A stretch of DNA of 20,687 bases from a virus, in the IMG/VR virus record IMGVR_UViG_3300039412_000174, positions 1 through 20,687 of that record; one strand, written 5' to 3'. The notes beneath the pieces were generated by a model. That model was not told the DNA's origin. It ran no database searches and was given only the letters and a program-made list of their open reading frames with translations. The translations under genes and the position numbers were made by a program. Shown in pieces: positions 6,420 to 20,473 of this stretch (within the stretch, counting starts at the first letter, position 1; every line of letters starts with the position of its first letter).

Positions 6420-6962
6420 TTAGCGAAGACGATTGTAAAAACAAAGTATCTTCTCTATTCTTATAAATTTTTCTTTATTAGCGTTGTAAAGTTCTTCAAG
6501 GAACTTTCCATCGGCGGTATACATCTCATCATATCTTTTATCAACGATTAATTCTTTTTTTAAAACAAACTGTGCCTGGTCTATATGACAATGCCTCGGG
6601 TCAATCCCTCGCTCACAGCCATTGTTGAATTGCTGTTTGAATAAAACTCCTTGGACATTTGGGTCGGTGATATTTTCAAGCTCTTTGACCAGCTGCGGAT
6701 GTAAGAGGTTGTCGTCATCCAATACCCACACCCAGCCTTCTTCTATTATGCTGAGAGCGAGATTTCTCTGTGGATAGCCAGCAAGTTTTTTGTCAAGCCA
6801 AAATTCTCTTACCCAAGGAATATGTTTAAATTTTCTCTCTCCCTGCTCAGCGTCATAGACGATATACCACCAAATTTTTTCTTTATCGCCATAAGACTTT
6901 ATTGACTCGTATAATTTTTGTAAATTCTCGGGACGGGAACAGGGCGTGACAATGTTTAGCAT
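6420..6962 (-). CDS. Small GT-A type glycosyltransferase, 180 aa
   Basis: The product begins like a GT-A enzyme (LNIVTPCSRPENLQKLYESI), has WWYIVYDAE at about 31-39, AGYPQRNLAL at 61-70 and VWVLDDDN at 78-85. The DDD at 82-84 is the expected DxD motif for metal and nucleotide-sugar binding. QRNLAL followed by a DDDN motif is reminiscent of the GT43-like arrangement, though the protein is short and a GT2-like relative is equally possible. The likely reaction is transfer of a sugar from a nucleotide sugar in the cytoplasm. It overlaps the upstream GT4 gene's stop by 7 nt, so the two are probably made together. The acceptor cannot be told from sequence. Confidence 0.75.
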   Translation of the reverse strand: MLNIVTPCSRPENLQKLYESIKSYGDKEKIWWYIVYDAEQGERKFKHIPWVREFWLDKKLAGYPQRNLALSIIEEGWVWVLDDDNLLHPQLVKELENITDPNVQGVLFKQQFNNGCERGIDPRHCHIDQAQFVLKKELIVDKRYDEMYTADGKFLEELYNANKEKFIRIEKILCFYNRLR

Positions 6963-8188
6963 AATATCTTATCTAATGTATTTATAAAATCTGTCGTTGA
7001 CTTAGTCCAATTCCAATTAAAGTGAACTCGCTCACTGGCCTGCTTGCCCATCGTCTTTATCTTATCCCGATGCTCATAAGCCCAGCGCATCTTCTGCTTT
7101 AACTGTGCGAAATCAGGCTCCGCCCATAAACCACATTCTTCCTTATAAATTTCCTTGGTAAAATTTAACGCTGGCTCTAACTTATAATCTAACAATAAGG
7201 TATCATCTTTATCCCCAAAATCAGCTAAGCCTGACCAGTTAGTCATTATACAGGGAATGCCGGTCGCCATCGCCTCTAACGGCGGAAGACCAAACCCTTC
7301 GCCACGGGACGGGAAAACGAAACAATCCATCTGGCTTAGATACTCCAACTTCTTCTCGTGACTACACACCTCACCGATGACGATTATTCTACTGTCGTCT
7401 ATCTTGCCTAAGTTCAACATCGCATCGCTGGTCTTCAACATCAAGGCTACATCTTTCTCGGTCTTAAATTCCTCCTTGAAAGCCTTAATCAATAAATCCG
7501 TTCCTTTTCTGATTGATAGCCTTCCTAAGCTGCCAAACACGAAGGTGCTATTCTCAGAACGCTCTATGTAGGGATACTTCAACGGATCAACTCCGTGATA
7601 ATAGATATAGATAGGAACTTTAACTCCTGAATTTTTAAAGCACTCTACATTTTGCTTACAGGTGGTAAATATTCCATCCATCTTATTCATCTGGCCGACC
7701 CAAGACGGCGGCACTTGTGAGGTCTCCCAGGGAGTGTAGCCGAACATCCTCTCGGCCATGTTCCGCCGATACTGCCCAGGTTGACGATACTGAATGACGA
7801 CGCAGTCAGGGTCAATATTCTTTTTGTAGTTGCTAAATTCCTCATCGAAAAAAGACTTCTTATCAAACTGCTGACCGCCGAAACAAACATCAACCCCTAA
7901 ATTTCCCAAGCTCTTGACGGCGTTCATTGACACCGAGCCAAACCCAGAGAAGCTGTCGGCGTTAGACTCCCAATACAACTTACGATAATCCTTAGTCCAG
8001 TTTTTAGAATTATATGGACAAGTGTAGTCAGAGAGCAGCTCAAAGTCGTCATTCTTCAATAGCTCAATGGCGTCGGCCGGAGAGACCTTAGTCAAGCTAT
8101 CTTTAAATTGAACATAATGACCTTTAATGTTATCTCTAACCCAGAAAAATCTTCCTGGATATTTTTTGTCTCTGACTACACATTCCAT
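6956..8188 (-). CDS. Glycosyltransferase family 4-like (GT-B), 410 aa
   Basis: The C-terminal half is a typical Glycos_transf_1 domain: FVFGSLGRLSIRKGTDLLI (about 216-234), a helix-strand region ending IIVIGEV, MDCFVFPSRGEGFGLPPLEA (287-306) with the E-x7-E pair at E297 and E305, and GIPCIMTNWSG. The N-terminal GT-B half includes SFSGFGSVSMNAVKSL (79-94), the glycine-rich acceptor-side loop. Residues 1-60 form an extra polar stretch before the GT-B fold. The predicted role is retaining transfer of a sugar from a nucleotide sugar. It belongs to the three-gene glycosyltransferase group between the capsid and connector genes. Acceptor and sugar are unknown. No Shine-Dalgarno precedes ATG 8188. 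Confidence 0.88.
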   Translation of the reverse strand: MECVVRDKKYPGRFFWVRDNIKGHYVQFKDSLTKVSPADAIELLKNDDFELLSDYTCPYNSKNWTKDYRKLYWESNADSFSGFGSVSMNAVKSLGNLGVDVCFGGQQFDKKSFFDEEFSNYKKNIDPDCVVIQYRQPGQYRRNMAERMFGYTPWETSQVPPSWVGQMNKMDGIFTTCKQNVECFKNSGVKVPIYIYYHGVDPLKYPYIERSENSTFVFGSLGRLSIRKGTDLLIKAFKEEFKTEKDVALMLKTSDAMLNLGKIDDSRIIVIGEVCSHEKKLEYLSQMDCFVFPSRGEGFGLPPLEAMATGIPCIMTNWSGLADFGDKDDTLLLDYKLEPALNFTKEIYKEECGLWAEPDFAQLKQKMRWAYEHRDKIKTMGKQASERVHFNWNWTKSTTDFINTLDKILC

Positions 8189-8199
8189 ATTTAGATGTA

Positions 8200-8439
8200 T
8201 TATTGAATATAATCAGTCACGTAATCCAAAACTTCATAGGCGGCATCAAAGGCGTTGCTCGCTCCAGCCATAAGCGCTCTGACTTGGGTGATGTCTAATC
8301 CTGGGTCTTTGTAATTAAAGCCATTAGCCTGATCAGGTGTTAATCCACCTGACGAGGAATAGCTCGCAGCTCTGGCTACGCGATGAGCCATCTTCAAATA
8401 CCTCTCAACCGTTCTTAAGTTTTCAATTGATAGTATCAT
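8200..8439 (-). CDS. Small paralogous protein B (tandem pair), 79 aa
   Basis: Starting at ATG 8439 (MILSIENLRTVERYLK), this product aligns over its whole length with the gene at 8541-8786. Shared are IENLR..ER.LK.A.R..RAASYS near the start, a conserved DI..VR.LMA.A in the middle and DYIQ at the very end. An upstream in-frame ATG at 8454 is possible but would overlap the 32-codon gene before it, and the paralog supports the inner start. The protein looks mostly helical with a Gly/Ser-rich loop. There is no signal peptide, Cys motif or recognised domain. Its position in the structural block suggests a minor virion protein or an accessory of the glycosyltransferases; neither is shown. Confidence 0.7.
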   Translation of the reverse strand: MILSIENLRTVERYLKMAHRVARAASYSSSGGLTPDQANGFNYKDPGLDITQVRALMAGASNAFDAAYEVLDYVTDYIQ

Positions 8440-8440
8440 A

Positions 8441-8539
8441 TTATTTCTTATCAACTAACGGAACATATTCTATTCCAAGCTCTTTACAAGCGGCCTTAAT
8501 CAATAATCCTAACGCTATTAATTCTGTTTTGATGTTCAT
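8441..8539 (-). CDS. Tiny hypothetical protein between paralogs, 32 aa
   Basis: ATG 8539 opens a frame MNIKTELIALGLLIKAACKE...VDKK ending in TAA at 8441, one base before the next gene's chosen start. It begins one base after the upstream paralog's stop and fills the gap exactly, which is the main argument that it is translated. It has a short hydrophobic centre (LIALGLLIKAA) that could be an amphipathic helix. It could be the residue of a third copy or a leader that couples translation of the pair. Function is unknown. Confidence 0.45.
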   Translation of the reverse strand: MNIKTELIALGLLIKAACKELGIEYVPLVDKK

Positions 8540-8540
8540 A

Positions 8541-8786
8541 TTATTGAATGTAATCACTTATAAAGTAAGCTATTAATGCCGCCGCTCCCTTCGGATAGTT
8601 AGCTAACGCCATCAAAAAGCGAACTGTAGCTATGTCTCCGATGTTGCTTTTTCTGTTTAAAGAATTTACATTAGAAGGCTCAATTGAACCATCCGTTGAA
8701 TAGGAAGCCGCTCGCACCGCACGATAAGCGTTCTTTAAAATCCTCTCGGTTGACCGTAAATTTTCAATTGTTAATTCCATTGCCAT
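8541..8786 (-). CDS. Small paralogous protein A (tandem pair), 81 aa
   Basis: The product starts MAMELTIENLRSTERILK and ends FISDYIQ. It is a diverged copy of the gene at 8200-8439, sharing IENLR..ER.LK.A.R..RAASYS, VR.LMA and the terminal DYIQ. ATG 8786 is supported by a strong AAGGAG six bases upstream, one of the very few canonical ribosome binding sites in the window. The first half is basic and helical and the second half more hydrophobic. It follows the GT2 gene. I do not recognise the family; a minor structural or decoration role is only a guess from location and from the strong start signal. Confidence 0.72.
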   Translation of the reverse strand: MAMELTIENLRSTERILKNAYRAVRAASYSTDGSIEPSNVNSLNRKSNIGDIATVRFLMALANYPKGAAALIAYFISDYIQ

Positions 8787-8792
8787 ATATTT

Positions 8793-8798
8793 CTCCTT
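8793..8798 (-). promoter_or_regulatory. Strong Shine-Dalgarno for the 8541-8786 gene
   Basis: The minus strand reads AAGGAG followed by six bases and then ATG at 8786. It matters because nearly all other genes in the window lack such a site, so this small gene may be translated more strongly than its neighbours. Confidence 0.7.
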
Positions 8799-8840
8799 TA
8801 TATTTATGCGCCTTAGGGTAGCGCTTAAAAACCCGACCTT

Positions 8841-9605
8841 TTATTTTTTTATACTTTGCTGTGTCCATTTTATCGGCTTCATGATGTCATTGAAAGGATA
8901 AGCATATACCTCTTCACCTAAATTACCCCACTTACAGATATAATAATTTCTATTTTTCCTAAACATCTCAGTGTTGACTATTCCACCGTTAACTTGATTT
9001 TGCGTCTTAGAGCCAAAGTGATGATATAAGGCGTTCGGATATTTAATTGATTTTAATCCAGCCATCTTGATCCGATACTCCATGTCGTTATCTTCAAAAT
9101 ATGCTCTCTCAAATCCCTCGTCAAATTCACCGACTGACTCAAATAATCTTTTATCAATCATAAATGCTGAATAGTCGCCGCCATTTATCTCATCTATCAA
9201 AAGATTTTGCCCAAAATTACACTCAGGTTGGTTAGTTGGACTTATCAAAACGATGTTATTCTTATTCATTCTTTCAACTAATTCTCTAATACACTTTTCT
9301 TCAAATATCGTATCGTTATTAATTACAAAGCAATAATCCGCGCCCTCTTCAAACGCCTTTTTAATCCCTAAGTTCCAAGACTTAGCGACGCCCAAGTTTT
9401 CTTCGTTTCTGATTAATTGGATTGAGATACCCGCTCTTATCTTTTCTTCAATCCTCTCCTTGGTCTCATCGGTTGAGCCGTTGTCTATAATGATTAAATT
9501 CAATAGACAATCCTCGGGAAGTATCTGTCTTGCGAGAGAATTTATACAATTCTCGGTATATTCTTTCCAGAGATTTATGACAGGAATAATTGTTGTAATT
9601 TTCAT
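8841..9605 (-). CDS. Glycosyltransferase family 2, 254 aa
   Basis: The product has the GT-A layout: TTIIPVINLWKEY at the start, LIIIDNGSTDET at 37-48, NLGVAKSWNLGI at 70-81, FVINNDTIF at 93-101 where the DxD-like metal site would be (NND), a catalytic-type AYFEDNDMEYR at 168-178, and LYHHFGSKT near 193-201. This resembles rhamnosyltransferase-like GT2 enzymes that use dTDP- or UDP-sugars. It is the first gene after the major capsid gene, separated from it by a hairpin. No membrane segment is seen, so it should act in the cytoplasm. The substrate is unknown; capsid or tail decoration or host glycan change are both possible. Confidence 0.88.
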   Translation of the reverse strand: MKITTIIPVINLWKEYTENCINSLARQILPEDCLLNLIIIDNGSTDETKERIEEKIRAGISIQLIRNEENLGVAKSWNLGIKKAFEEGADYCFVINNDTIFEEKCIRELVERMNKNNIVLISPTNQPECNFGQNLLIDEINGGDYSAFMIDKRLFESVGEFDEGFERAYFEDNDMEYRIKMAGLKSIKYPNALYHHFGSKTQNQVNGGIVNTEMFRKNRNYYICKWGNLGEEVYAYPFNDIMKPIKWTQQSIKK

Positions 9606-9671: not shown

Positions 9672-10607
9672 CTAAGAATTCGGATCAGCTACATTCGCGA
9701 TAACCGCTTGCCACGGCTCAGCTTTAACGGCTAAGACCGTATACTCATTGATGTAAAATCTGACTGTATCAGCTACCTTAGCTAATTCAGTTCTTCCAAC
9801 CGGCAATAAGTCAACCATCTCTAATTCAGGGACGTTCAAAACGTATACATTAGAAATAGGATAACCTTGCGGTCCGGATGAACCAGCCTGATTTACAGGA
9901 TAAGGAGAGGCAGGATTGATGAAGAAATCACCAATCAATGGCAGAACGCCAGCCGGAGTCTGAATGTTATTCGCATTCAAGCCCATCGTGACGGTAGTGC
10001 CAGCGCTCGCGATATATCGTAAATCACCTAAGAGCAAAGAGTTCAATTGATTTTGAACACCAAAAGAACAAAACACGTGCGTCGGTTGACCACCTTCTAA
10101 TCTGATCAGCTTTACAGCCTTACAGATATCTTCGTAGTTCAACGCTGCGCCGCCTTTGTCAATATAGTTGGTTTTCAATTGTCTGTCTAAGCCATCAAAC
10201 TGTAGTCCGACAATCGGATTACCCTGAGAGTCATATCCAATTTGAGTCTCATCGCCGTGAAATATCGCCCACTCTTCAGCTTGAATTAACTGACGCAATT
10301 TAGCTTCAGCTACCTCAGCTTCTATATCCGTAAATGACCTGCCACTTGCAATCATCGGACCCGTTATATTCGCCGCTACGCCTAAATATTTATAGGCAGC
10401 AGTTTTTTGTTGATACACAGGGTCGCTGAAAACAGGGGCGTCGCCATCAGCATAGAAAAGTTGGGTAGTAAGTTCAGCTTGAGTCGCGCCAAGTTTAATT
10501 CTTTGATTCCATAGATGAGCTCTCCCTTCCCCTTTCTTTCTCTTTAAGATGTCTCTTAAAGGAGTTTCACGATAGGTTAGCTTAACAATGGAAGCTTCTA
10601 AATCTTG
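9672..10607 (-). CDS. Major capsid protein, exon 2 (residues 30-340)
   Basis: This exon encodes nearly all of a HK97-fold-type major capsid protein: QDLEASIVKLTYRETPLRD, then AANITGPMIASG, a long helix with EAEVAEAKLRQLIQAEEWAIFHGD, GLQFDGLDRQL, THVFCSFGVQNQL, and the C-terminal LPVGRTELAKVADTVRFYINEYT stretch. The pattern is close to SU10/DUF5309-like capsid proteins. The frame upstream runs open only to a TAA at 10617-10619, inside the intron, and has no credible start. A GTG at 10418 lies in the middle of the fold and is not a true start. Joining to exon 1 (11579-11665) after intron removal restores one 340-residue protein. It follows the protease/scaffold gene, the canonical order. Stop is TAG. 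Confidence 0.88.
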   Translation of the reverse strand, partial: QDLEASIVKLTYRETPLRDILKRKKGEGRAHLWNQRIKLGATQAELTTQLFYADGDAPVFSDPVYQQKTAAYKYLGVAANITGPMIASGRSFTDIEAEVAEAKLRQLIQAEEWAIFHGDETQIGYDSQGNPIVGLQFDGLDRQLKTNYIDKGGAALNYEDICKAVKLIRLEGGQPTHVFCSFGVQNQLNSLLLGDLRYIASAGTTVTMGLNANNIQTPAGVLPLIGDFFINPASPYPVNQAGSSGPQGYPISNVYVLNVPELEMVDLLPVGRTELAKVADTVRFYINEYTVLAVKAEPWQAVIANVADPNS

Positions 10608-11578
10608 CGATTTTGTTTATTAGCAATTACTATTATTCATTGCTCTCCAATTACTTGGAGTGTCGGACTATATCATCATCCAAAATATATTTTACAATAG
10701 TGTCTAATTTTTCATTTCTAATAACTTTAAATCTTTTTACTCTATAACCCAATTTTCTTAATTCTTTGCTAATTAAATTATCTTTATCTCTTGAATTTCT
10801 GTGCCAATAAATTCCATCAAGATAAATACAAAGATTTGTTTTAGGAATGAAAATATCTACATAAGTCAAAATTTTATCTGTTAAAACTCTATGTTGAGAA
10901 ATAAAATTAATGTTATTTAATCTTAATTTTTCACATACAATTATTTCTAATTTAGAAACTCTTGTTGTTTTAATTGATGCTCTGGCAATTCTACCTATTT
11001 ATTTTCTTCTCTCTTCGGGAATAAGCATTAATGATTTTGAAATATTTTTACTTATACTTCTTAATTTTTTAGAAGTTTTTTTAGTTAAACCTTTATTCCA
11101 AACATCATAATTATGCTTTCTGCCTAATTGCCATTTGCTCATTTTATCTCTTGTCGCTTGAGTATGCTTTTTATTAAAAGTAGATTTATGTCCCATTAAC
11201 GCTTTACTGAGTTTTATCTTATAATTTTCATACTCAGGATTATTAATCCGAGCTAAAGTATAGTTTAAAACTCTTGGGTCATCTTTCGTCAAACCTTTAT
11301 TCCAAGCGACCCTACCTTTCATAGCATCACTTAAATTTTGCCTATGTTCTATTGTAAATGTTCTTTTTGGAGTCTCGCGTGTAGTCTCTACGGACTCGCT
11401 ATTTTCTTGTCTCATAAATTTGTAGTTAATAATTATATTCCTAATTATACTACATCTTGCCGAGCAAGTAAATAGATTGCCTCGGTATTGTCCTCTATTC
11501 CCATAAATAGTAGGAGTTCACCGATACAGCGAGATTTTCTTAAAGGATATTGCTATCCTTTGCTCGCCAAAATTATCA
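10608..11578 (-). ncRNA. Group I self-splicing intron in the major capsid gene
   Basis: Intron of 971 nt. P1: exon GCUCGU (11579-11584) pairs with guide GCGAGC (11562-11567) with a U.G pair at the splice site. P10: guide UUUUG (11568-11572) pairs with 3' exon CAAGA (10603-10607). P2 at 11542-11561 has an 8-bp stem with a GCAA tetraloop. P3: UCUCGC (11529-11534) with GCGAGA (11373-11378). P4: UCGGU (11520-11524) with ACCGA (11482-11486), enclosing P5; P6 lies at 11462-11483. P7: GACUA (11382-11386) with UAGUC (10666-10670), the latter in an AUAUAGUCC S-element. P9 at 10645-10660 has a GUAA loop. The last intron base is G (10608). Both splice sites keep the capsid frame. All pairings were found by eye. 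Confidence 0.9.
10651..11415 (-). pseudogene. Intron homing endonuclease (NUMOD3 + Vsr-like EDxHD), broken by one in-frame TAA
   Basis: One frame runs through the intron from ATG 11415 to TAA 10651, interrupted only by TAA at 10999-11001 (codon 139). Codons 1-138 carry NUMOD3-type DNA-binding repeats (FTIEHRQNLSDAMKGRVAWNKG, then a WQLGRKHNYDVWNKG copy). After the stop the frame continues IGRIARASIKTTRVSKLE and enters a Vsr-like nuclease: E at codon 157 (SKLE), D187 (YVDIFIP), DG at 200-201, H205 (YWH), then RD. These are the residues of the EDxHD family. The 3' part alone has only a TTG at 10869, after the catalytic Glu, so it would not make a full nuclease. It is probably a decaying homing gene, unless the TAA is a sequencing error or is read through. 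Both ends overlap the intron core. Confidence 0.8.
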
Positions 11579-11665
11579 ACGAGCTAAGAGTGAATTTGGG
11601 ATACCACCCGCAAATGTTAAATTCACGGATTTCTCAAATTGCTCTAACGCTTTATTAATATCCAT
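11579..11665 (-). CDS. Major capsid protein, exon 1 (residues 1-29)
   Basis: ATG 11665 opens a frame MDINKALEQFEKSVNLT, continuing FAGGIPNSLLAR up to the intron 5' splice site. The unspliced frame meets TGA at 11576-11578 at once, so the product needs splicing. The joined sequence NSLLAR|QDLEASIVKLTYRE reads naturally as a capsid N-arm. No Shine-Dalgarno is visible before the ATG. A short exon like this is easily missed, leaving the capsid gene annotated as a truncated frame. No other ATG lies in the 130-nt leader upstream, and the frame meets TAG at 11693-11695, so this start is the best choice. Confidence 0.82.
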
Positions 11666-11797: not shown

Positions 11798-13411
11798 TTA
11801 TTTAGAGGATAGATTTTTCTTAAAGTAGTCCTGAAAACTTACATCCTTATCAGCTAAGTCTTTGCTTTTATTAACCTCTTCATCTTCGCCATCATCGGCA
11901 ATCTTAGTGTTCTTTTCAACGATGAACGCTTTTGCTTTTCGTTCATTCGGCTGTTTCAAGAATTTTTCCACCGCTAACTCAAGATTAAGAACTCTCTTGC
12001 CGTGCTTAAGCAAACTCTTCTCAACAATGTTAGTCATCACCTTGGTTAACACATTCATATCAACCTCAGATTTTTTAGACTTACTTGTAGATTCAGAGTC
12101 GCTTGAGCTGTCAGATGAATCTGAGCTATCTGACTCAGAGCTGTCAGATGAATCTGAGCTATCTGACTCAGAGCTATCAGAACCATTGGAACTTTCAGAG
12201 TCTGAGCTACTATCTTCCTTTTTAGTGTGAATAGTTTGCTTTGTTGACTCCATTTTTATTCCCTTAGTTGATTCGGTTTCGGTTGTATCATCTTTCGCTT
12301 TATCGGTTTCATCGGTTGTGGAATCATCGGTCGTATCATCCGCCTTGCCACAACCTTTTTCCATTCCTTTGAAAGCATCTTCAAATGCTTTCATGACGAT
12401 GGACTTAGTCATTTTTAAATCTTTTTCATTCATAATATTGTTATTAGTAATTTTATAATTGGTTTGTTTTAAAAATTCATCAGGAATAGATTTCGCTATG
12501 GAATACTGCCAATCTAACTTCTTATTCTCTGACAGATATTGTTTATAGAAATCAGCTACTCCTGGGTCATTTTTATTCTTTTTCTTGGCGACAAGCCAAG
12601 TATCAAAATTACTTGGTCTATTTGTCACACTAACCTCCTTCAACAAGACATCGTAAAATGTCTTGACTTTTCTCCCAAGGGTTTCGGCCATTTCAAGTCC
12701 AGCTCGCTTTACTATGCCAGCGATGGACAACCCAAGTTGCGCACCATTTTTTAGTGCTCTATATAAATCAATAGACTTGCTACTGTCTTTATTTAATTCT
12801 GCTCTGATGTGGAACTGTCCTCGGTCGTCAATCCAGCCCTTCGTGATGCCGCCAAGCAATCCGTCCCACTCCTTGCTGTGTTCTGAGCGAAGTTGAACTC
12901 CACCTTTGTCAATACAATCAACCATCGCTTTCAACGCCTCAGGAGCCATCCGTTCCTCATCATGGTCAACATTCGTGGTAGAGGCGAGTCCTTCAACTAT
13001 CATGTGTTCAGGTAGCGTCTCTTCTCTGACAATATTCCCGTTAAAATCTTTAACGATCCTTGTCTCCATTTGTCCGCTCTCTGATGTGCAGGCTTTCTCA
13101 ATTATAAATTGAAAAGGAACTCCACCTGTTATCTCAAAATCTACTGGCTGGCCGTCTTTATTCACACCTTTAAATTTAGAAAAGTCTATGCCCTTCTTTG
13201 TGCGCGGAGTTTTGTCTTCAGGCTTCAGAGGCTTATGAGGTTGCTCAGGCGAGTCAATGTTTCCACCTTCACCACCCTCATAGGTATCAAAATCATCCTT
13301 CGTGGTATCTTGGGAGTCCATGAAATCACGGCCTTCATTAAATTTTTTCTTTTTTTGAACTTTTTGAACTGAATAATTATCAATCCAAAACTTTTTAAAA
13401 TCATTATCCAT
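11798..13411 (-). CDS. Prohead protease fused to Ser/Asp-repeat and scaffold-like region, 537 aa
   Basis: Residues about 95-280 are a HK97-type (U35) prohead protease: HMIVEGLASTTNVDHDEERM at 136-155, LRSEHSKEWDGLLGGITKGW at 174-193 with the expected catalytic His178, GAQLGLSIAG at 223-232 with nucleophile Ser229, then DVLLKEVSVTNRPSNFDTW. Residues 1-94 form a polar leader. Residues 330-537 resemble a scaffold: acidic, Thr/Asp-rich, then a Ser/Asp/Glu repeat (about 401-440), then a basic helical end with VEKSLLKHGKRVLNLELAVEKFLK. Protease and scaffold are therefore one polypeptide, which self-cleavage could separate. An internal ATG at 12433 (residue 327) could give scaffold alone, though no Shine-Dalgarno precedes it. 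It lies between portal and capsid genes, the canonical place. Confidence 0.88.
   Translation of the reverse strand: MDNDFKKFWIDNYSVQKVQKKKKFNEGRDFMDSQDTTKDDFDTYEGGEGGNIDSPEQPHKPLKPEDKTPRTKKGIDFSKFKGVNKDGQPVDFEITGGVPFQFIIEKACTSESGQMETRIVKDFNGNIVREETLPEHMIVEGLASTTNVDHDEERMAPEALKAMVDCIDKGGVQLRSEHSKEWDGLLGGITKGWIDDRGQFHIRAELNKDSSKSIDLYRALKNGAQLGLSIAGIVKRAGLEMAETLGRKVKTFYDVLLKEVSVTNRPSNFDTWLVAKKKNKNDPGVADFYKQYLSENKKLDWQYSIAKSIPDEFLKQTNYKITNNNIMNEKDLKMTKSIVMKAFEDAFKGMEKGCGKADDTTDDSTTDETDKAKDDTTETESTKGIKMESTKQTIHTKKEDSSSDSESSNGSDSSESDSSDSSDSSESDSSDSSDSSSDSESTSKSKKSEVDMNVLTKVMTNIVEKSLLKHGKRVLNLELAVEKFLKQPNERKAKAFIVEKNTKIADDGEDEEVNKSKDLADKDVSFQDYFKKNLSSK
12105..12170 (-). repeat. 33-nt perfect tandem repeat (two units) in the Ser/Asp region
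   Basis: Two identical 33-nt units (12105-12137 and 12138-12170) lie head to tail, followed by the start of a third from 12171. Each encodes 11 residues of the SDSSESDSSDS type. The identity at the DNA level points to recent expansion by slippage or unequal recombination, so copy number probably varies between relatives. Confidence 0.85.
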
Positions 13412-13441: not shown

Positions 13442-16400
13442 TTATTCGCTCTTATATTGAGCGATTATATTATCCGCTAAATCATCTAAGTTATTTTCAT
13501 CAATAAACGGCTCTACGCTACACTCACAATTCGGGTGTAAGGGAGGGTCTCCAGCATCTTCTAAATCATCTCGGCTTAATAGCTGATCGGCATAGGCGTT
13601 CTGACAATCATCGCAAGCATCAGCGTCTAATAGAACTTCAAACTTCTCAACTCCTAACTCTTGGCCTGCTTCAATGCTTCCTTGATTAGCCGCCCAAGCG
13701 GTCTCAGTCTTAGCGATTCGCTTGACCTCAAACTCTTCTAAGGGTAAGGAAAACTTCTCCATCGCGTTATCAGAAATCTCGCTCATCGGCTTGCCTTGGT
13801 CGGCCTCATTCTCAATGTAGTTTAACAATCGTTCTTGCTTATTGGCGGCGACGATCTTAATCATATTCGTGCCCCGCTCTTTTAATTTTGTATAAATCTT
13901 ATTTCGCTCTATTGACTTCTCAACCTTCTTACCTAATACCGTTTCAATCATCGCTTCGCTGACTCCTTTGCCTTTCAACTTCTTAGCTATCTTCTTAGAA
14001 AAATTCTTAACGCCTAACTCAAATGATTGTTTATAAAAATCTTCAACGCTCTTGGTGTATCTTAACCCTAAGTTATTTCTTGGAGCTTTATCAGCGGCCT
14101 CGGAAAGCACGGCGTCTGAGGCAATCATCTTCTTGGTCTTAGCCGTATCCCGTATCAAGCGAGCGATGTTAGGCTTTAATTTTTTAGATTGCTCAGTTAA
14201 GTGCGAGGCTAACTCTTCGGCTGGCTTATCCATTACTCCTTTCCAGAAGTTATCATGCTCGTCAATTTGCCTCTGCTTATAATAGCCTTTTTCAAAGCTC
14301 TTCTTCATCGCCTCATTCAACCTCGTGTAATAATCAGCCTTCTCGTCCAAGTGAGCCATCACTATCTTAGCGGTCATAACTGGGTCGCCCATCGTAATGT
14401 TCTTATGTTCCAATTCTTCATTCATCCCTATCGTAAATTCGTCTATGCTGTAATCTCCGTCGTCAATGCCTAACTCCTTCCAGACTTGCTTAGTATCATC
14501 GGTCGTAAAAATGCCTTTCTCAACTCCATCCTCAGCGGACTTTTGAACCTTCAACTGCTCGGCGTCCAGGCCAGTAAGATGTAAAAATAAATCTCTCAAC
14601 CTTGGGATGCTGTCTAAGATATGCGGAATGGAAAATTTATATTTTTCCCACGCTTTTGAATTGCCGATAAATTGATAGTCAAAGCCATAAGCTCTTTTAT
14701 CGGGCGTGATGATATATTGGTTCGCCCGTCTGTCGCCCATTCCTTTTTCTTTTTCGTATTTCCAAAGGTTAGCTAAATCGGTGATAGCCTTCTCATACTC
14801 GCCAGGCACTCGCTTCATGTCATCTAATAATAAAGTCTCTGTTAACCCTTTGCCTTCAATATAAGGCATCACGGTATACTTATCATACTTGCGAGAATTT
14901 CCAAACTTAGTCTCCCACTTTTTGGAGTAATACTCCGAAGCCATATTTTGATAACGCTTAAACTCATTTCTTAATCCAGTCGTCGGCAGATAGCTATTTA
15001 TATCTACCGCCGCCACCAACGAAACAGGTTTGACGTTCAATCCTGCGTCGGCCATCTCCTTGGTTGTCTTAACCTCCACATCTATGCCGTTGATATTAAC
15101 CGCGACAGGCGGCTTAATCACAAAGCCATTCTTACCGAACTTATCCGTCCAGATAAAAGGTTGTCCAAAACCTCTATCATCCATCCAACAGATATAATCA
15201 TCAAGATGAACTTTCTTTTCAATCTGTTTCTCAGTTGAACTTTCACTTTCAGAAGTATAACCAATTTCGTCTCTTATCCCCGCGACATTCTCATGTCCAT
15301 AGTCTCCTTCCTTATTGACGCTTGACTCATCGCTTATAGTATTGATTGAGCTAATATCAGAATCTGATTGAGTCTCTGATTGAGTTTTACCGCCTGACTC
15401 ATTTTCAGTCATAGTCTCTTCGTTAGCCAAATCTTCAGGAGCCACATCATCAATCGGCGTCGCGTCAATCTCTTTAATAGTTCCACCTGGTAATAAGATA
15501 AAAGGTTTAACGCCACCCTTGATAGGTTTTAATCCTTTTAATAGTCTATATTCGTTGATAGATACCGCTCCAGCCTTAGACTCAATCGCAAATATATTAG
15601 CCGCCTCCATCGGGTCAAAGGTGTCTAACCCTGTCCAATCAAACTCCACGTCATCAAAGCCAAACCAATTTTTTATAATCTCTCTATTAAAAGAAGCTTT
15701 TAGTAATTGTAAAATTGAGCTATAACCCTTTGACTCGGAGATGTCTTGCTGCACCTCTGAGATAGCTCTGTTCAACCCCATCTCAGCCGTCATGCCGATG
15801 TCCTGCGGGCTTATCTCAAAAGCTCCACATAATATCTTCATCAGCCAAGTTTGATAATTTTTAAACTGCATGTCAATCGGCTTGCCGGTGTCCATGTCAA
15901 CGACATCAAAGCCCTCACTGCCAGCGATAAAAGCCGTCTTCCATGGCTTGCCTTCAATCTCAGATTTCCAGTAAGCTCTCATGGCCTCAACCTCAGCTGG
16001 CGGAACATCCTTGCCGAGATTAATTAACTTCGGTGGCAAAGTCCCGACGTCAAAATACTGCCCCATGTAATTGTCGGCGTTCAAGATATTAGTCGCCGCC
16101 ATTATCGCTCCCTCTAACGAGGAGAAGCCATATCCATAGTTTTGAATATCGCCTTGCGGGTTCTGCATGATATAGACAAATTCATCTCTATTCCAGACGG
16201 CGTCAGGCTCTATGCCTTGGTTCATCGGCATCCATTGGCCATATGCTGGTTCAGCCATTTCTCCATGAATATCAAACATCGGCTTGATGGTCGCTCCGTC
16301 AACAAAATAAATCTCAGCCGGCAATCCGCTCTTATCGTTAACCTTCTCAAAACACCCAGCATCTAAAACCAAGATATCCTCAAGCAACTTATCTAAGAAG

Positions 16401-16792
16401 GTGCGAAAGCTGTCGTAGCGATTTGGCTTATCAAAGAACTCGGTCAGTATCTCAATGTGCTTGTCATCGGCTTGGTTTTCTTCTTTCGACTTAATCGTCC
16501 ATTCGGTTTGAGTTATCTTATGCTTCAAGGTGTTTATACAAAGCCGAGCGATGTGAACCGCCTTAGACATCCGCCTTAGAGTTTGAAAGGTGATGCGGGT
16601 TGGCTTTCTAATTCCCTTCTCGGTGCTCCGATAGAAGACTTTGCTCGTATCTAACACCAAGCCCTGCTTCTCGGAAGACTTAACCACCTCAACGGGAGTC
16701 ACCTCGCTGGTTATCTTCTTGTTAATATTATCAACGACGCTATTTGAGATGCGGTTGATTATATTATCAAATGTTTTTTGAAAGATATTCAT
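13442..16792 (-). CDS. Portal protein fused to kinase-like, DUF5661-like and MuF domains, 1116 aa
   Basis: Residues about 45-440 are a phage portal: PTRITFQTLRRMSKAVHIARLCINTLK, LEDILVLDAGCFEKV, PQGDIQNYGYGFSSLEGA, PPAEVEAMRAYWKSEIEG, CGAFEISPQDIGM, and the SINEYRLLKGLKPI end. A Ser/Glu/Asp linker covers 450-525. Residues 528-745 resemble a small-molecule or protein kinase fold: FVIK (K560), MPYIEGKGLTETLL (642-655), GMGDRRANQYII (684-695; D687, N691) and YGFDY (D705). Residues about 778-835 (FTIGMNEELEHKN, IVMAHLDEKADYYTRL) look like DUF5661. The C-terminus is MuF: KRIAKTETAWAANQG (1024-1038), DACDDC and PLHPNCECSVEP. A typical portal is 400-550 residues. The portal and MuF calls are firm; the kinase-like call is inference. 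Confidence 0.9.
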   Translation of the reverse strand: MNIFQKTFDNIINRISNSVVDNINKKITSEVTPVEVVKSSEKQGLVLDTSKVFYRSTEKGIRKPTRITFQTLRRMSKAVHIARLCINTLKHKITQTEWTIKSKEENQADDKHIEILTEFFDKPNRYDSFRTFLDKLLEDILVLDAGCFEKVNDKSGLPAEIYFVDGATIKPMFDIHGEMAEPAYGQWMPMNQGIEPDAVWNRDEFVYIMQNPQGDIQNYGYGFSSLEGAIMAATNILNADNYMGQYFDVGTLPPKLINLGKDVPPAEVEAMRAYWKSEIEGKPWKTAFIAGSEGFDVVDMDTGKPIDMQFKNYQTWLMKILCGAFEISPQDIGMTAEMGLNRAISEVQQDISESKGYSSILQLLKASFNREIIKNWFGFDDVEFDWTGLDTFDPMEAANIFAIESKAGAVSINEYRLLKGLKPIKGGVKPFILLPGGTIKEIDATPIDDVAPEDLANEETMTENESGGKTQSETQSDSDISSINTISDESSVNKEGDYGHENVAGIRDEIGYTSESESSTEKQIEKKVHLDDYICWMDDRGFGQPFIWTDKFGKNGFVIKPPVAVNINGIDVEVKTTKEMADAGLNVKPVSLVAAVDINSYLPTTGLRNEFKRYQNMASEYYSKKWETKFGNSRKYDKYTVMPYIEGKGLTETLLLDDMKRVPGEYEKAITDLANLWKYEKEKGMGDRRANQYIITPDKRAYGFDYQFIGNSKAWEKYKFSIPHILDSIPRLRDLFLHLTGLDAEQLKVQKSAEDGVEKGIFTTDDTKQVWKELGIDDGDYSIDEFTIGMNEELEHKNITMGDPVMTAKIVMAHLDEKADYYTRLNEAMKKSFEKGYYKQRQIDEHDNFWKGVMDKPAEELASHLTEQSKKLKPNIARLIRDTAKTKKMIASDAVLSEAADKAPRNNLGLRYTKSVEDFYKQSFELGVKNFSKKIAKKLKGKGVSEAMIETVLGKKVEKSIERNKIYTKLKERGTNMIKIVAANKQERLLNYIENEADQGKPMSEISDNAMEKFSLPLEEFEVKRIAKTETAWAANQGSIEAGQELGVEKFEVLLDADACDDCQNAYADQLLSRDDLEDAGDPPLHPNCECSVEPFIDENNLDDLADNIIAQYKSE

Positions 16793-18008: not shown

Positions 18009-18262
18009 AAATTTAATTTAAAAATATTTAAGTAAAGTTTGTTATTAATATCTAAGTCGCAGGCTTCATAAGCAAGCGTCTTAACATCAATCGCGTGAAA
18101 TCCACTCTCATTAAAGATATAAAATTCTACTCCCATCCAATCCTTAAATGCGTTTCGCCACTCCGACTCAGCTAATCTTCCATATTGCCAAACTCCATCA
18201 CTGTCTAATCCTCTGAATAGCATCGGCTTTATAACTCCATCTGGGCAATCAATTAATTTCAT
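17969..18262 (-). CDS. Hypothetical protein, possibly YopX-like, 97 aa
   Basis: The product starts MKLIDCPDGVIKPMLFRGLD, followed by SDGVWQYGRL, and later has VEFYIFNESGFHAIDVKTL and DLDINNKLYL. A FRG-D-GxWxYG start, a VxTL element and a D.NNKLY element vaguely match the layout of YopX-type phage proteins, but the match is weak and I would not rely on it. It overlaps the methyltransferase stop by ATGA and the following zinc-ribbon gene by 40 nt. No catalytic motif is visible. Treat as a small accessory protein of unknown function. Confidence 0.65.
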   Translation of the reverse strand: MKLIDCPDGVIKPMLFRGLDSDGVWQYGRLAESEWRNAFKDWMGVEFYIFNESGFHAIDVKTLAYEACDLDINNKLYLNIFKLNLCPITSDAIAVDN

Positions 18263-18825
18263 ACATAGATAACTCCAATCCCTCTGCGTATCCCATCCTC
18301 ACTAATCTCTAATATTTTTCTATTTATCTTAATCTCTTGCCAAGGCTTCTTACATTCGTGATTGATGTCGTGTAAAGCGATGACACCGCTCTTACTCATC
18401 AGCGGCAGGTAATTTTTAAAATCAGCCATACAGCCCTCGTAGCTATGGTCGCCGTCTATGAATAAGAAATCTATGCCGTCGGGAAATTCTTGCTTGACTC
18501 TATCAATCGTTTCTTTTGACTTTGAGTCTTCCGTGATTGAAACAAACTTAGGCACATCTTTAAATATCTCAGGCCACTTAGCTCTTGACTCAATTAACTT
18601 ATCATATCGTCCATCGCTTAACGGAATTAACTTGTCAACAGACATCAACTTATTTAAGCCGATAAATCCTTCCGCCCAGCACCAGAGACTGCCGCCATAG
18701 AAAGAACCAATCTCTAAGACATTCTTGATAACCAGTGGGTCGCAATCAATAACCTCATTAATTAACTTATTCACCTCCCATTCATTTTGTAAAATCTCAA
18801 CGGGGCAGTCTTTTAATTTAATCAT
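18259..18825 (-). CDS. Class I SAM-dependent methyltransferase (CmcI/Methyltransf_24-like), 188 aa
   Basis: A Rossmann-type methyltransferase. NVLEIGSFYGGS (about 35-46) is motif I for S-adenosylmethionine; MSVDKLIPLSD carries the acidic residue at the end of strand 2; GIDFLFIDGDHSYEG (117-131) is the DGDH motif of the Methyltransf_24/cephalosporin-hydroxylase-like group; GVIALHDI follows at 147-154. Relatives often methylate sugars or natural-product scaffolds. Here it lies between large terminase and portal, and three glycosyltransferases occur downstream, so O-methylation of a glycan is one possible role. ATG 18825 (MIKLKDCPVE) is chosen; an in-frame ATG at 18849 would add eight residues. 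No Shine-Dalgarno supports either. Confidence 0.82.
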   Translation of the reverse strand: MIKLKDCPVEILQNEWEVNKLINEVIDCDPLVIKNVLEIGSFYGGSLWCWAEGFIGLNKLMSVDKLIPLSDGRYDKLIESRAKWPEIFKDVPKFVSITEDSKSKETIDRVKQEFPDGIDFLFIDGDHSYEGCMADFKNYLPLMSKSGVIALHDINHECKKPWQEIKINRKILEISEDGIRRGIGVIYV

Positions 18826-18931
18826 ATAAATAAAAGTTGGCTGACTCATCTATCGTTGGCTTCAAGTCATTTAACTGAGGATAGTTTAATTTAAGAGTCC
18901 ATCTGCCCTTTCCAACCCACCTCAGCACCAA
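18818..18931 (-). CDS. Possible tiny ORF upstream of the methyltransferase, 37 aa
   Basis: A TTG at 18931 opens a 37-residue frame with VLRWVGKGRWTLKLNYPQL and an acidic end, closing at TAA 18818 within the methyltransferase start. The same frame extends further upstream to a TTG at 19036, but that part is Lys/Arg-rich, as expected from the shifted reading of the acidic gene at 18939-19100. The tail fills an otherwise empty ~110 nt gap in a tightly packed region. With no good start or ribosome site, the evidence is thin. Confidence 0.3.
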   Translation of the reverse strand: MVLRWVGKGRWTLKLNYPQLNDLKPTIDESANFYLYD

Positions 18932-19114: not shown

Positions 19115-20473
19115 TTAGTAATCTCTCTCTATCCTCTCTTTTTCGCTCGCCTTTATCAGCTCTCGGTCTAACTGTCTGATCTGCTCTCTCTTTTCTTCAG
19201 GCGTTAGCTGTTTAACCTCTCCAACTACGATAGGCTTCAGTGGCTCAACCGTCTGTTCATAAGGCATCTTATCTCCATCTAACCTCGCGAAGCTTATCTT
19301 GGTCTTTGTAAAGAATGAGGCAAGCGGATAACGAGTGGCATCCATGGCGTGGTCATCTACCTTGACGGGTTTTTCTTTAATCTCCTTATTCTCTTTAAAC
19401 TCAGGGTAATGATAAATCTCTATCTCCTCTAAAAAGAACTTACAGCGAGGGTGAACATAAAATCTCTTTTCTTTTATCAATCCTTGAATAATCCCGACCC
19501 CGAAATCTATGTCTTTGTTAGAGTCTCTGATGACAAATCCCTCTCTCCTGAACTCCTCTATCCTGTCTTGCTCGGCTGAGTCGGCGTAAAATGTAGAGAT
19601 AGGATACTTATCTAAGAACGCCTTCGCTATGGCTGATAGCTCGCTGGTTATCTTATTACTCTCGTAAAACTCGTCTATTATGTAAATTACATTATCTTTA
19701 ATTCCCAAGATGATTATCGCCGTTGGAGCTTTAAATCCCCAGTCAATCCCCGCTAAGACTACATCAAACGAGTTTGGAATTTTATCCGTGACGTTAAATG
19801 AGTAATTAAAGTCCTCATATACCAACCCCTCCATCTTTGTAAATAAACCGCAGTATCTTCGCTCAAAGGTTCTCCTGTCCATCGTGTCTTTAACTCTATC
19901 AAACTCCTCTTGCGGGAAATAAGGATTGTCAACCGAACGGAATTGAATTACATCATAATCCTTATTGCCTTTCTTCCACTGCTCGTAGAAGTCTGTTCTT
20001 AGCCAGTTAATTGAATAAGGCGTAGTTGATAAAAAAACATTTCCCTTCAAGATGCTTATGCGACCTTGGATATTAATCCAAGCCTGAAGCTTCATCTGCC
20101 CCGCCTCATCCGCCCATATCCATCTCAGCGTCATGCCTTCAATAACATTTGGGTTCTCCGTGGAGCGAATGTAAATAATTCCCCTATTAGGAACTTCAAT
20201 CGTTCCCTTGCTCTCCTTATAAAATACTCTTAAATCTGGGTTTAATTGAAAAAATTTTGGCAGTGTTGATTGTGAAAGAATCTTGTATGTAGGAGCGCAG
20301 ATTAATCCATCATCCTTAGGATATTCGTTGTATCTCATCCTTGACCAGCTCGCACCCGCGAAAGTCTTGCCTCCTTGAATGCCTGAGATGATGGCGATAA
20401 ATCTACTCGGACTTTGTATCGCTCTCGTCTGGTAATCCGTTAGGTCGTATGATATTTGATTTGGTTGGGTCAT
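19115..20473 (-). CDS. terL: Terminase large subunit, 452 aa
   Basis: The packaging motor ATPase and nuclease. The ATPase half has an adenine-binding-like LTDYQTRAIQ (11-20), Walker A GIQGGKT (31-37), Walker B LRWIWADEAGQM (116-127) and a coupling-type LSTTPYS (148-154). The RNase H-like nuclease half has AGIDWGF (241-247; D244), FYADSAEQ (295-302; D298) and DDHAMDATRY (373-382), together the three acidic metal sites. Length is normal for a large terminase. It begins inside the small terminase gene with a 71-nt overlap in another frame; a later start would lose the LTDYQ region, so the overlap seems real. It binds the portal to translocate DNA and cuts concatemers. No Shine-Dalgarno is seen. 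Confidence 0.95.
   Translation of the reverse strand: MTQPNQISYDLTDYQTRAIQSPSRFIAIISGIQGGKTFAGASWSRMRYNEYPKDDGLICAPTYKILSQSTLPKFFQLNPDLRVFYKESKGTIEVPNRGIIYIRSTENPNVIEGMTLRWIWADEAGQMKLQAWINIQGRISILKGNVFLSTTPYSINWLRTDFYEQWKKGNKDYDVIQFRSVDNPYFPQEEFDRVKDTMDRRTFERRYCGLFTKMEGLVYEDFNYSFNVTDKIPNSFDVVLAGIDWGFKAPTAIIILGIKDNVIYIIDEFYESNKITSELSAIAKAFLDKYPISTFYADSAEQDRIEEFRREGFVIRDSNKDIDFGVGIIQGLIKEKRFYVHPRCKFFLEEIEIYHYPEFKENKEIKEKPVKVDDHAMDATRYPLASFFTKTKISFARLDGDKMPYEQTVEPLKPIVVGEVKQLTPEEKREQIRQLDRELIKASEKERIERDY

What the first reader, a model, noticed from the sequence alone, without database searches (positions are those of the whole stretch)
13442..16792. 1116-residue portal fused to a kinase-like domain, DUF5661 and MuF
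Portal-MuF fusions are known, but here about 220 residues between them resemble a kinase fold: VIK lysine (K560), a hinge-like MPYIEGKGL, then GDRRAN with D687 and N691 as a catalytic-loop candidate and FDY with D705 in the place of the metal-binding Asp. A DUF5661-like segment follows. A phosphotransferase on every portal subunit, 12 per virion, could modify capsid, MuF or host proteins on entry. The D-to-N spacing is 4 rather than the usual 5, so it may be divergent or inactive.
Basis: inference. Interest (0 to 1): 0.75.

Follow-up and report, generated by a model that had tools for sequence, protein, structure and literature searches.

The report
Phage portal protein carrying kinase-like domain
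In a group of uncultured phages, the ring protein through which DNA enters and leaves the virus head carries a second domain that is predicted to fold like a protein kinase and keeps a kinase's active-site residues, so each particle probably holds a ring of enzymes that sequence-family searches do not recognise.

Summary
Window 13442-16792 (minus strand) encodes 1116 residues: HK97-type portal (about 50-440), variable linker (441-524), an unassigned domain (about 525-740), DUF5661 (768-827) and MuF (about 999-1093). The unassigned domain matches nothing meaningful by sequence in Pfam, PHROGs or the PDB, and nothing by tblastn in about 50,700 phage and 72,600 plasmid records. AlphaFold2 folds it well (pLDDT 86.8, pTM 0.83); all of the 50 best PDB matches are kinases (best E 3.4e-6), although TM-scores are only about 0.3-0.5. 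I found 16 further IMG/VR portals with the domain (17 sequences, 15 distinct). K560, the alpha-C-like E573, D687 and D705 are invariant in 17/17; position 691 is Asn in 5, Asp in 12. Seven of the 15 distinct portals end within about 25 residues of the domain, four carry a ~110-residue tail, and only four run on into MuF: the constant unit is portal plus kinase-like domain. Most likely it is an active kinase-fold transferase tethered to the portal inside the head. Activity, substrate and release are untested. Enzymes on portal/MuF proteins and kinases in phage polyvalent proteins are known; I found no published portal-kinase fusion.

The parts
13442..16792 (-). whole gene: portal - linker - kinase-like domain - DUF5661 - MuF, 1116 aa
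15473..16645 (-). HK97-type portal domain, residues about 50-440
   Evidence: PF04860 E 3.7e-26; phrog_2662 portal E 6.5e-57
15221..15472 (-). Ser/Thr/acidic linker, residues 441-524, predicted disordered; 26-91 residues long in relatives, 20.7% mean identity
14573..15220 (-). kinase-like domain, residues about 525-740
   Evidence: AlphaFold2, Foldseek, conservation
15155..15181 (-). DDRGFGQPF (538-546), turn between strands 1 and 2, in the place of a kinase Gly-rich loop
15113..15115 (-). K560, in strand 3 (VIKPP), ATP-binding Lys candidate
   Evidence: invariant 17/17; strand 3 of the model
15074..15076 (-). E573, in the alpha-C-like helix, Lys partner candidate
   Evidence: invariant 17/17; helix 48-61 of the model
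14915..14935 (-). EYYSKKW (620-626), motif special to this family, in an insert before strand 5
   Evidence: Y621, S623, W626 invariant 17/17
14732..14734 (-). D687, catalytic Asp candidate in GDRRANQY
   Evidence: invariant 17/17; nine members were found by a pattern that contains it
14720..14722 (-). N691, metal-ligand candidate
   Evidence: N in 5, D in 12 of 17
14678..14680 (-). D705 in FDYQF, metal-binding Asp (DFG position) candidate
   Evidence: invariant 17/17
14312..14491 (-). DUF5661, residues 768-827; absent from most relatives
   Evidence: E 7.2e-10; architecture
13514..13798 (-). MuF-like domain, residues 999-1093
11798..13411 (-). neighbouring gene, probable prohead protease fused to a Ser/Thr-acidic scaffold-like region
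   Evidence: homologs behind the portal in relatives; EHSKEWD and LGLSIAG motifs; protease assignment is inference, no Pfam match

Best explanation
This is an HK97-type portal protein with a divergent, probably catalytically competent kinase-fold domain as its C-terminal extension, joined by a flexible linker and followed, in this subgroup, by DUF5661 and MuF. Inferred working: 12 subunits form the portal ring, whose C-termini face the inside of the head, so about 12 copies sit in the procapsid with scaffold, protease, MuF and DNA. The domain binds ATP-Mg through K560/E573 and the metal ligands N691 (or Asp) and D705, with D687 as catalytic base, and transfers a phosphate (or, less likely, a nucleotidyl group) to a nearby protein. 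Shown here: gene fusion, fold prediction, conservation of the active-site set, fixed linkage to the portal. Inferred: activity, position in the capsid, stoichiometry, substrate. I rate action during head assembly or DNA ejection and action in the host after release about equally likely.
For: Confident model with strand 3 Lys, alpha-C Glu, hinge, long alpha-E, catalytic loop and DFG-position Asp in kinase order, reproduced in the full-length run. Foldseek: 587 PDB hits at E <= 1e-3, the 50 shown all kinases; viral kinases dominate BFVD. K560, E573, D687, D705 invariant in 17/17. Always attached to a portal and as conserved as it: 50.4% vs 51.9% mean identity over 105 pairs, r 0.81, while the linker is at 20.7%. 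In the two most distant of six relatives the domain is closer to the window than the portal is (49-51% vs 39-41%).
Against: TM-scores to known kinases are 0.29-0.54. No sequence-profile link to any kinase family. Catalytic loop one residue shorter than the usual D-x4-N; position 691 varies; no conserved His before the Asp. No biochemical data. Position inside the capsid and 12 copies rest on general knowledge of portals.
Confidence: 0.62

Rival explanations
1. Injected effector: the prohead protease cuts the disordered linker, freeing the kinase-like domain (with MuF where fused) inside the capsid; it leaves with the DNA and modifies host proteins early in infection, as T4 Alt does by ADP-ribosylation and as proposed for kinases of phage polyvalent proteins.
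For: Head proteins such as MuF and portals fused to enzymes are read as injected effectors in the literature (PMC5512222; PMC9503650). Disordered variable linker and a probable protease gene next door.
Against: No cleavage site was identified. The domain stays on the portal in every member and is never swapped for another effector in the set found, unlike polymorphic effectors. Portals themselves are not known to be injected.
Confidence: 0.35
2. Assembly or ejection enzyme: the tethered domain modifies its neighbours in the procapsid, for example the Ser/Thr-acidic scaffold-like tract of the next gene or the portal linker, and so times scaffold exit, packaging or ejection.
For: Strict linkage and co-evolution with the portal. 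Ser/Thr-acidic tracts with 6-15 [ST]xx[DE] sites per 60 residues in the neighbouring protease/scaffold of all six members where that region is present, and 8 in the window's linker; other window genes have 0-3.
Against: Scaffold regions are often acidic anyway; no kinase-less control was made; no substrate data; linkers of several relatives are much shorter.
Confidence: 0.3
3. Pseudokinase or purely structural domain: the fold is kept as a binding module (nucleotide-sensing or protein-docking) without transfer activity.
For: Shortened loop, no conserved His, N/D variation at 691.
Against: Lys, alpha-C Glu, catalytic Asp and DFG-position Asp are all invariant in 17/17, and invariant residues gather in the active-site loops; pseudokinases usually lose one or more of these (general knowledge).
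Confidence: 0.2
4. Not a kinase fold: AlphaFold2 and Foldseek mislead on a shallow alignment, and this is an unrelated alpha/beta domain.
For: Low TM-scores and no sequence-profile match.
Confidence: 0.1

Closest known systems
Kinase domains of phage polyvalent proteins (Iyer et al. 2017, PMC5512222)
   Same: Kinase-like domain in a multidomain phage protein likely carried in the head; reduced C-terminal lobe; active-site residues kept
   Different: Here on a portal, with no conserved Glu before strand 2, no conserved Gln in strand 5, no conserved His before the Asp; no detectable Pfam match
Portal and MuF fusions to Nudix, 2H, ART, PBECR and other enzymes (PMC9503650, PMC5512222)
   Same: Enzyme domain fused to a head protein
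   Different: Different fold; here the domain is a constant part of the portal across the group rather than an exchangeable cassette
Portal-MuF fusion without kinase domain (Brevundimonas phage Strzyga, USN16723.1)
   Same: Portal, linker and MuF in one protein; portal homologous
   Different: No domain between them: best match to the family profile is 1.7 bits
A0A6J5S481, 1201-aa HK97-type portal of an uncultured Caudovirales phage
   Same: Hit by the kinase-like model (E 1.2e-4) and by the full-length model (E 5.6e-12), so probably also portal plus kinase-like domain
   Different: Sequence not available here; relation to this family unknown; annotated only as portal
Actin-fragmin kinase (1cja) and PI3-kinases such as VPS34 (4ph4)
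   Same: Best structural matches (E 3.4e-6 and 6.0e-6); the GDRRAN loop resembles GDRHxxN of PI3-kinases (from memory)
   Different: No match of the window to their Pfam families; loop one residue shorter; 11-14% identity
T7 gp0.7 protein kinase
   Same: Phage kinase acting on host proteins (cited in PMC5512222)
   Different: T7 makes it early in infection, as a separate protein (general knowledge); here it is fused to a late structural protein

Membership tests
Protein-kinase-like superfamily (fold) | Two-lobed fold: N-lobe sheet with alpha-C, hinge, C-lobe with alpha-E, catalytic loop and strands 7-8 | tested here: met
   Predicted only: pLDDT 86.8, elements in order; Foldseek hits are kinases; TM 0.29-0.54 leaves doubt
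Protein-kinase-like superfamily (fold) | Strand 3 Lys, alpha-C Glu, catalytic Asp, DFG-position Asp | tested here: met
   K560, E573, D687, D705 invariant in 17/17
Protein-kinase-like superfamily (fold) | Metal-binding Asn five residues after the catalytic Asp | tested here: not met
   N or D, four residues after
Protein-kinase-like superfamily (fold) | ATP binding and phosphotransfer | not testable with these tools
   needs protein
Protein-kinase-like superfamily (fold) | Sequence-profile match to a known kinase family | tested here: not met
Polyvalent-protein kinases (PMC5512222) | Conserved Glu before strand 2 | tested here: not met
   invariant Gln-Pro (Q544, P545) there, no conserved Glu
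[quoted passage not shown]
   strand 5 (638-643) has no conserved Gln
Polyvalent-protein kinases (PMC5512222) | Insert between a conserved His and the catalytic Asp | tested here: not met
   no conserved His precedes D687
Polyvalent-protein kinases (PMC5512222) | Loss of the C-terminal subdomain | tested here: inconclusive
   only short helices follow D705; extent not comparable without their alignment
HK97-type portal protein | Portal profile and place after terminase | tested here: met
   PF04860 E 3.7e-26; terminase large subunit at 19115-20473
MuF | PF04233 above cut-off | tested here: inconclusive
   23.1 vs 29.6 bits in the window; relatives L001 and L007 exceed it; PHROG E 2.8e-12

The most novel reading that the evidence does not exclude
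A whole lineage of tailed phages has turned the portal ring into a ring of about 12 kinases that works during head maturation or DNA ejection (for example on the Ser/Thr-acidic scaffold tract or the portal linker), so that phosphorylation by the portal itself controls assembly or ejection, rather than acting as one more injected effector.
Probability: 0.25. Interest if true: 0.82.

Novelty: new variant of a known kind. Interest (0 to 1): 0.62.

Why it matters
Portals are usually described as passive rings. A conserved kinase-like domain at the portal C-terminus, invisible to sequence-family searches and present in at least 15 distinct uncultured phages, would add an enzyme to the packaging and ejection machine and a new candidate class of virion-carried kinase. 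It gives a defined construct (residues about 519-745) and defined residues for a direct biochemical test.

Tried and rejected
Sequence-profile searches of Pfam, PHROGs and PDB with the domain gave no meaningful match; 4mnd and thermonuclease hits at E 0.08-0.65 vanish with seven sequences. Act-Frag_cataly and PI3/4-kinase profiles do not match the window. Genome contigs pattern scans: 41 stretches matched the GDRRANQY codon pattern, but none is a real homolog; L022 and L021 match only about 35 and 22-24 model positions, around the motif used to find them, and lack the rest. Samples of 395 and 398 genomes from two phyla, and the plasmid collection, held nothing; the genome samples had no positive control and prove nothing. 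Strzyga portal as a possible kinase carrier: rejected, it is portal-MuF only. Full-length AlphaFold2 with 7 sequences is poor for the portal (pLDDT 55.1) and was used only for the kinase and linker segments. Near-identical pairs held too few differences for a selection test on the domain.

Full report
What is in the sequence. The minus strand of 13442-16792 encodes one ORF of 1116 residues starting with ATG. The window is a virus record of 20,687 bases. Pfam finds a phage portal (83-418), DUF5661 (768-827) and a weak MuF match (999-1093, below the curated cut-off); PHROGs finds portal and minor head protein. Around it, all on the minus strand: terminase large subunit (19115-20473), a methyltransferase (18259-18849), a probable protease/scaffold gene (11798-13411), a capsid gene (C-terminal part 9672-10418), glycosyltransferases, head-tail adaptor and tail completion genes. 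This is an ordinary head-gene cluster with an unusual portal.

The middle domain has no recognised relatives by sequence. Pfam, PHROGs and PDB sequence searches give nothing meaningful. tblastn against about 50,700 phage records gives no match at E <= 1 for two different members, nor against plasmids.

Relatives. Scans of IMG/VR with single sequences, alignments and a degenerate motif found 16 other sequences with the domain, 15 distinct members in all including the window, each at the C-terminal side of a portal (the portal half aligns to the window in every one; Pfam portal matches in the members scanned). Ascertainment caveat: nine members were found only with a pattern that spells GDRRADQY, so conservation of D687 is guaranteed for those. 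K560, E573 and D705 were not in any pattern, and L001, L005, L006, L007, L011, L012 and L062 came from other patterns.

Architecture. L007, L011, L063, L064, L066, L070 and L072 end within about 25 residues of the domain. L012, L062, L068 and L071 carry a ~110-residue tail. Only the window, L001, L005 and L006 continue into MuF. In L007 MuF is the next gene; in the records of L064 and L072 a weak MuF-like match lies some 14 and 17 kb away. DUF5661 was tested in the window, and L001 has a similar segment. So the stable unit is portal plus this domain. A related portal-MuF protein of phage Strzyga lacks it.

Fold. AlphaFold2 with five sequences gives pLDDT 86.8 and pTM 0.83, with the elements of a kinase in order. 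The full-length run, poor elsewhere, reproduces the same elements for 527-740 and leaves 419-525 below pLDDT 50. Foldseek against PDB: 587 hits at E <= 1e-3, the 50 shown all kinases (or, for 7cy2, a kinase-like mycobacterial protein as far as I can tell from its entry name), led by actin-fragmin kinase and VPS34. Against viral models: kinases of giant viruses, a RIO-like kinase of a cyanophage, a torovirus replicase polyprotein (presumably its kinase-like NiRAN domain, from memory) and one other HK97-type portal, A0A6J5S481. TM-scores of 0.29-0.54 mean a distant or distorted match; I treat the fold as probable, not proven.

Active site. Across 17 sequences 43 positions are invariant. They concentrate in the beta1-beta2 turn (DDRGxxQPF), strand 3 (KPP with K560), the alpha-C-like helix (E573), a family-specific YxSxxW motif, the loop GDRRA(N/D)Q, and D705-x-Q-F. 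Position 691 is Asn in five and Asp in twelve; Asp can also bind metal (general knowledge). The spacing of 4 between D687 and 691 is fixed across the family. The D687 to D705 spacing of 18 equals that of PKA (D166 to D184, from memory). This argues for a working, unusual active site rather than decay.

How it may work. C-termini of HK97-type portals face the capsid interior, and portals are dodecamers (established for studied portals; not tested here). A tethered enzyme there would meet scaffold, protease, MuF and DNA. Two roles are about equally likely: action during assembly or ejection, or release by the neighbouring protease and delivery to the host. For the first: strict linkage and co-evolution with the portal (r 0.81), and Ser/Thr-acidic tracts in the neighbouring scaffold-like gene and the linker (no kinase-less control was made). 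For the second: literature on head-packaged effectors (PMC5512222, PMC9503650) and the disordered linker.

Known and new. Enzymes on portal or MuF proteins and kinases in phage polyvalent proteins are published. Searches of the paper library found no portal-kinase fusion, but most subscription papers and all bioRxiv preprints are missing from it. The domain fails the sequence hallmarks given for polyvalent-protein kinases, so I place it as a new variant of a known kind rather than as a member of that family.

Noticed in passing
window 9672-11665, minus strand: The major capsid gene is interrupted: exon-like parts at about 11579-11665 (ends GIPNSLLAR) and 9672-10607 (starts QDLEAS) flank about 970 bases that hold a NUMOD3/homing-endonuclease ORF (10999-11415), whose frame continues past a stop codon with further endonuclease-like sequence. 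Rfam finds no intron at gathering threshold.
   Followed up: partly
L001 12632-15563; L005 9363-11008: Capsid genes of relatives are also split; in L001 the insert lies at a different place (after AAYKYL) and HNH-type ORFs lie nearby, suggesting repeated intron invasion of this gene.
   Followed up: partly
window 6420-9605 and 18259-18849, minus strand: Three glycosyltransferase genes (6420-6962, 6956-8188, 8841-9605) and a methyltransferase lie among the head genes, perhaps for virion or host glycan modification.
   Followed up: no
C-terminal ~110 residues of the L012, L062, L068 and L071 portal proteins: A further small domain follows the kinase-like domain in these four members; no Pfam family was found for it.
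   Followed up: no
BFVD hits of the full-length model: Uncultured Caudovirales proteins annotated 'HAD_like' (A0A6J5R7M5, 722 aa) and 'Zeta toxin' (A0A6J5S9A2, 1069 aa) match this portal model, hinting at other enzymes fused to portals.
   Followed up: no
L001 4986-5543 and 5980-9651: A Gly-rich GGxGSGGAREGAGRP segment occurs both in a small upstream gene and inside the portal fusion of L001, between the kinase-like domain and the DUF5661-like segment.
   Followed up: no
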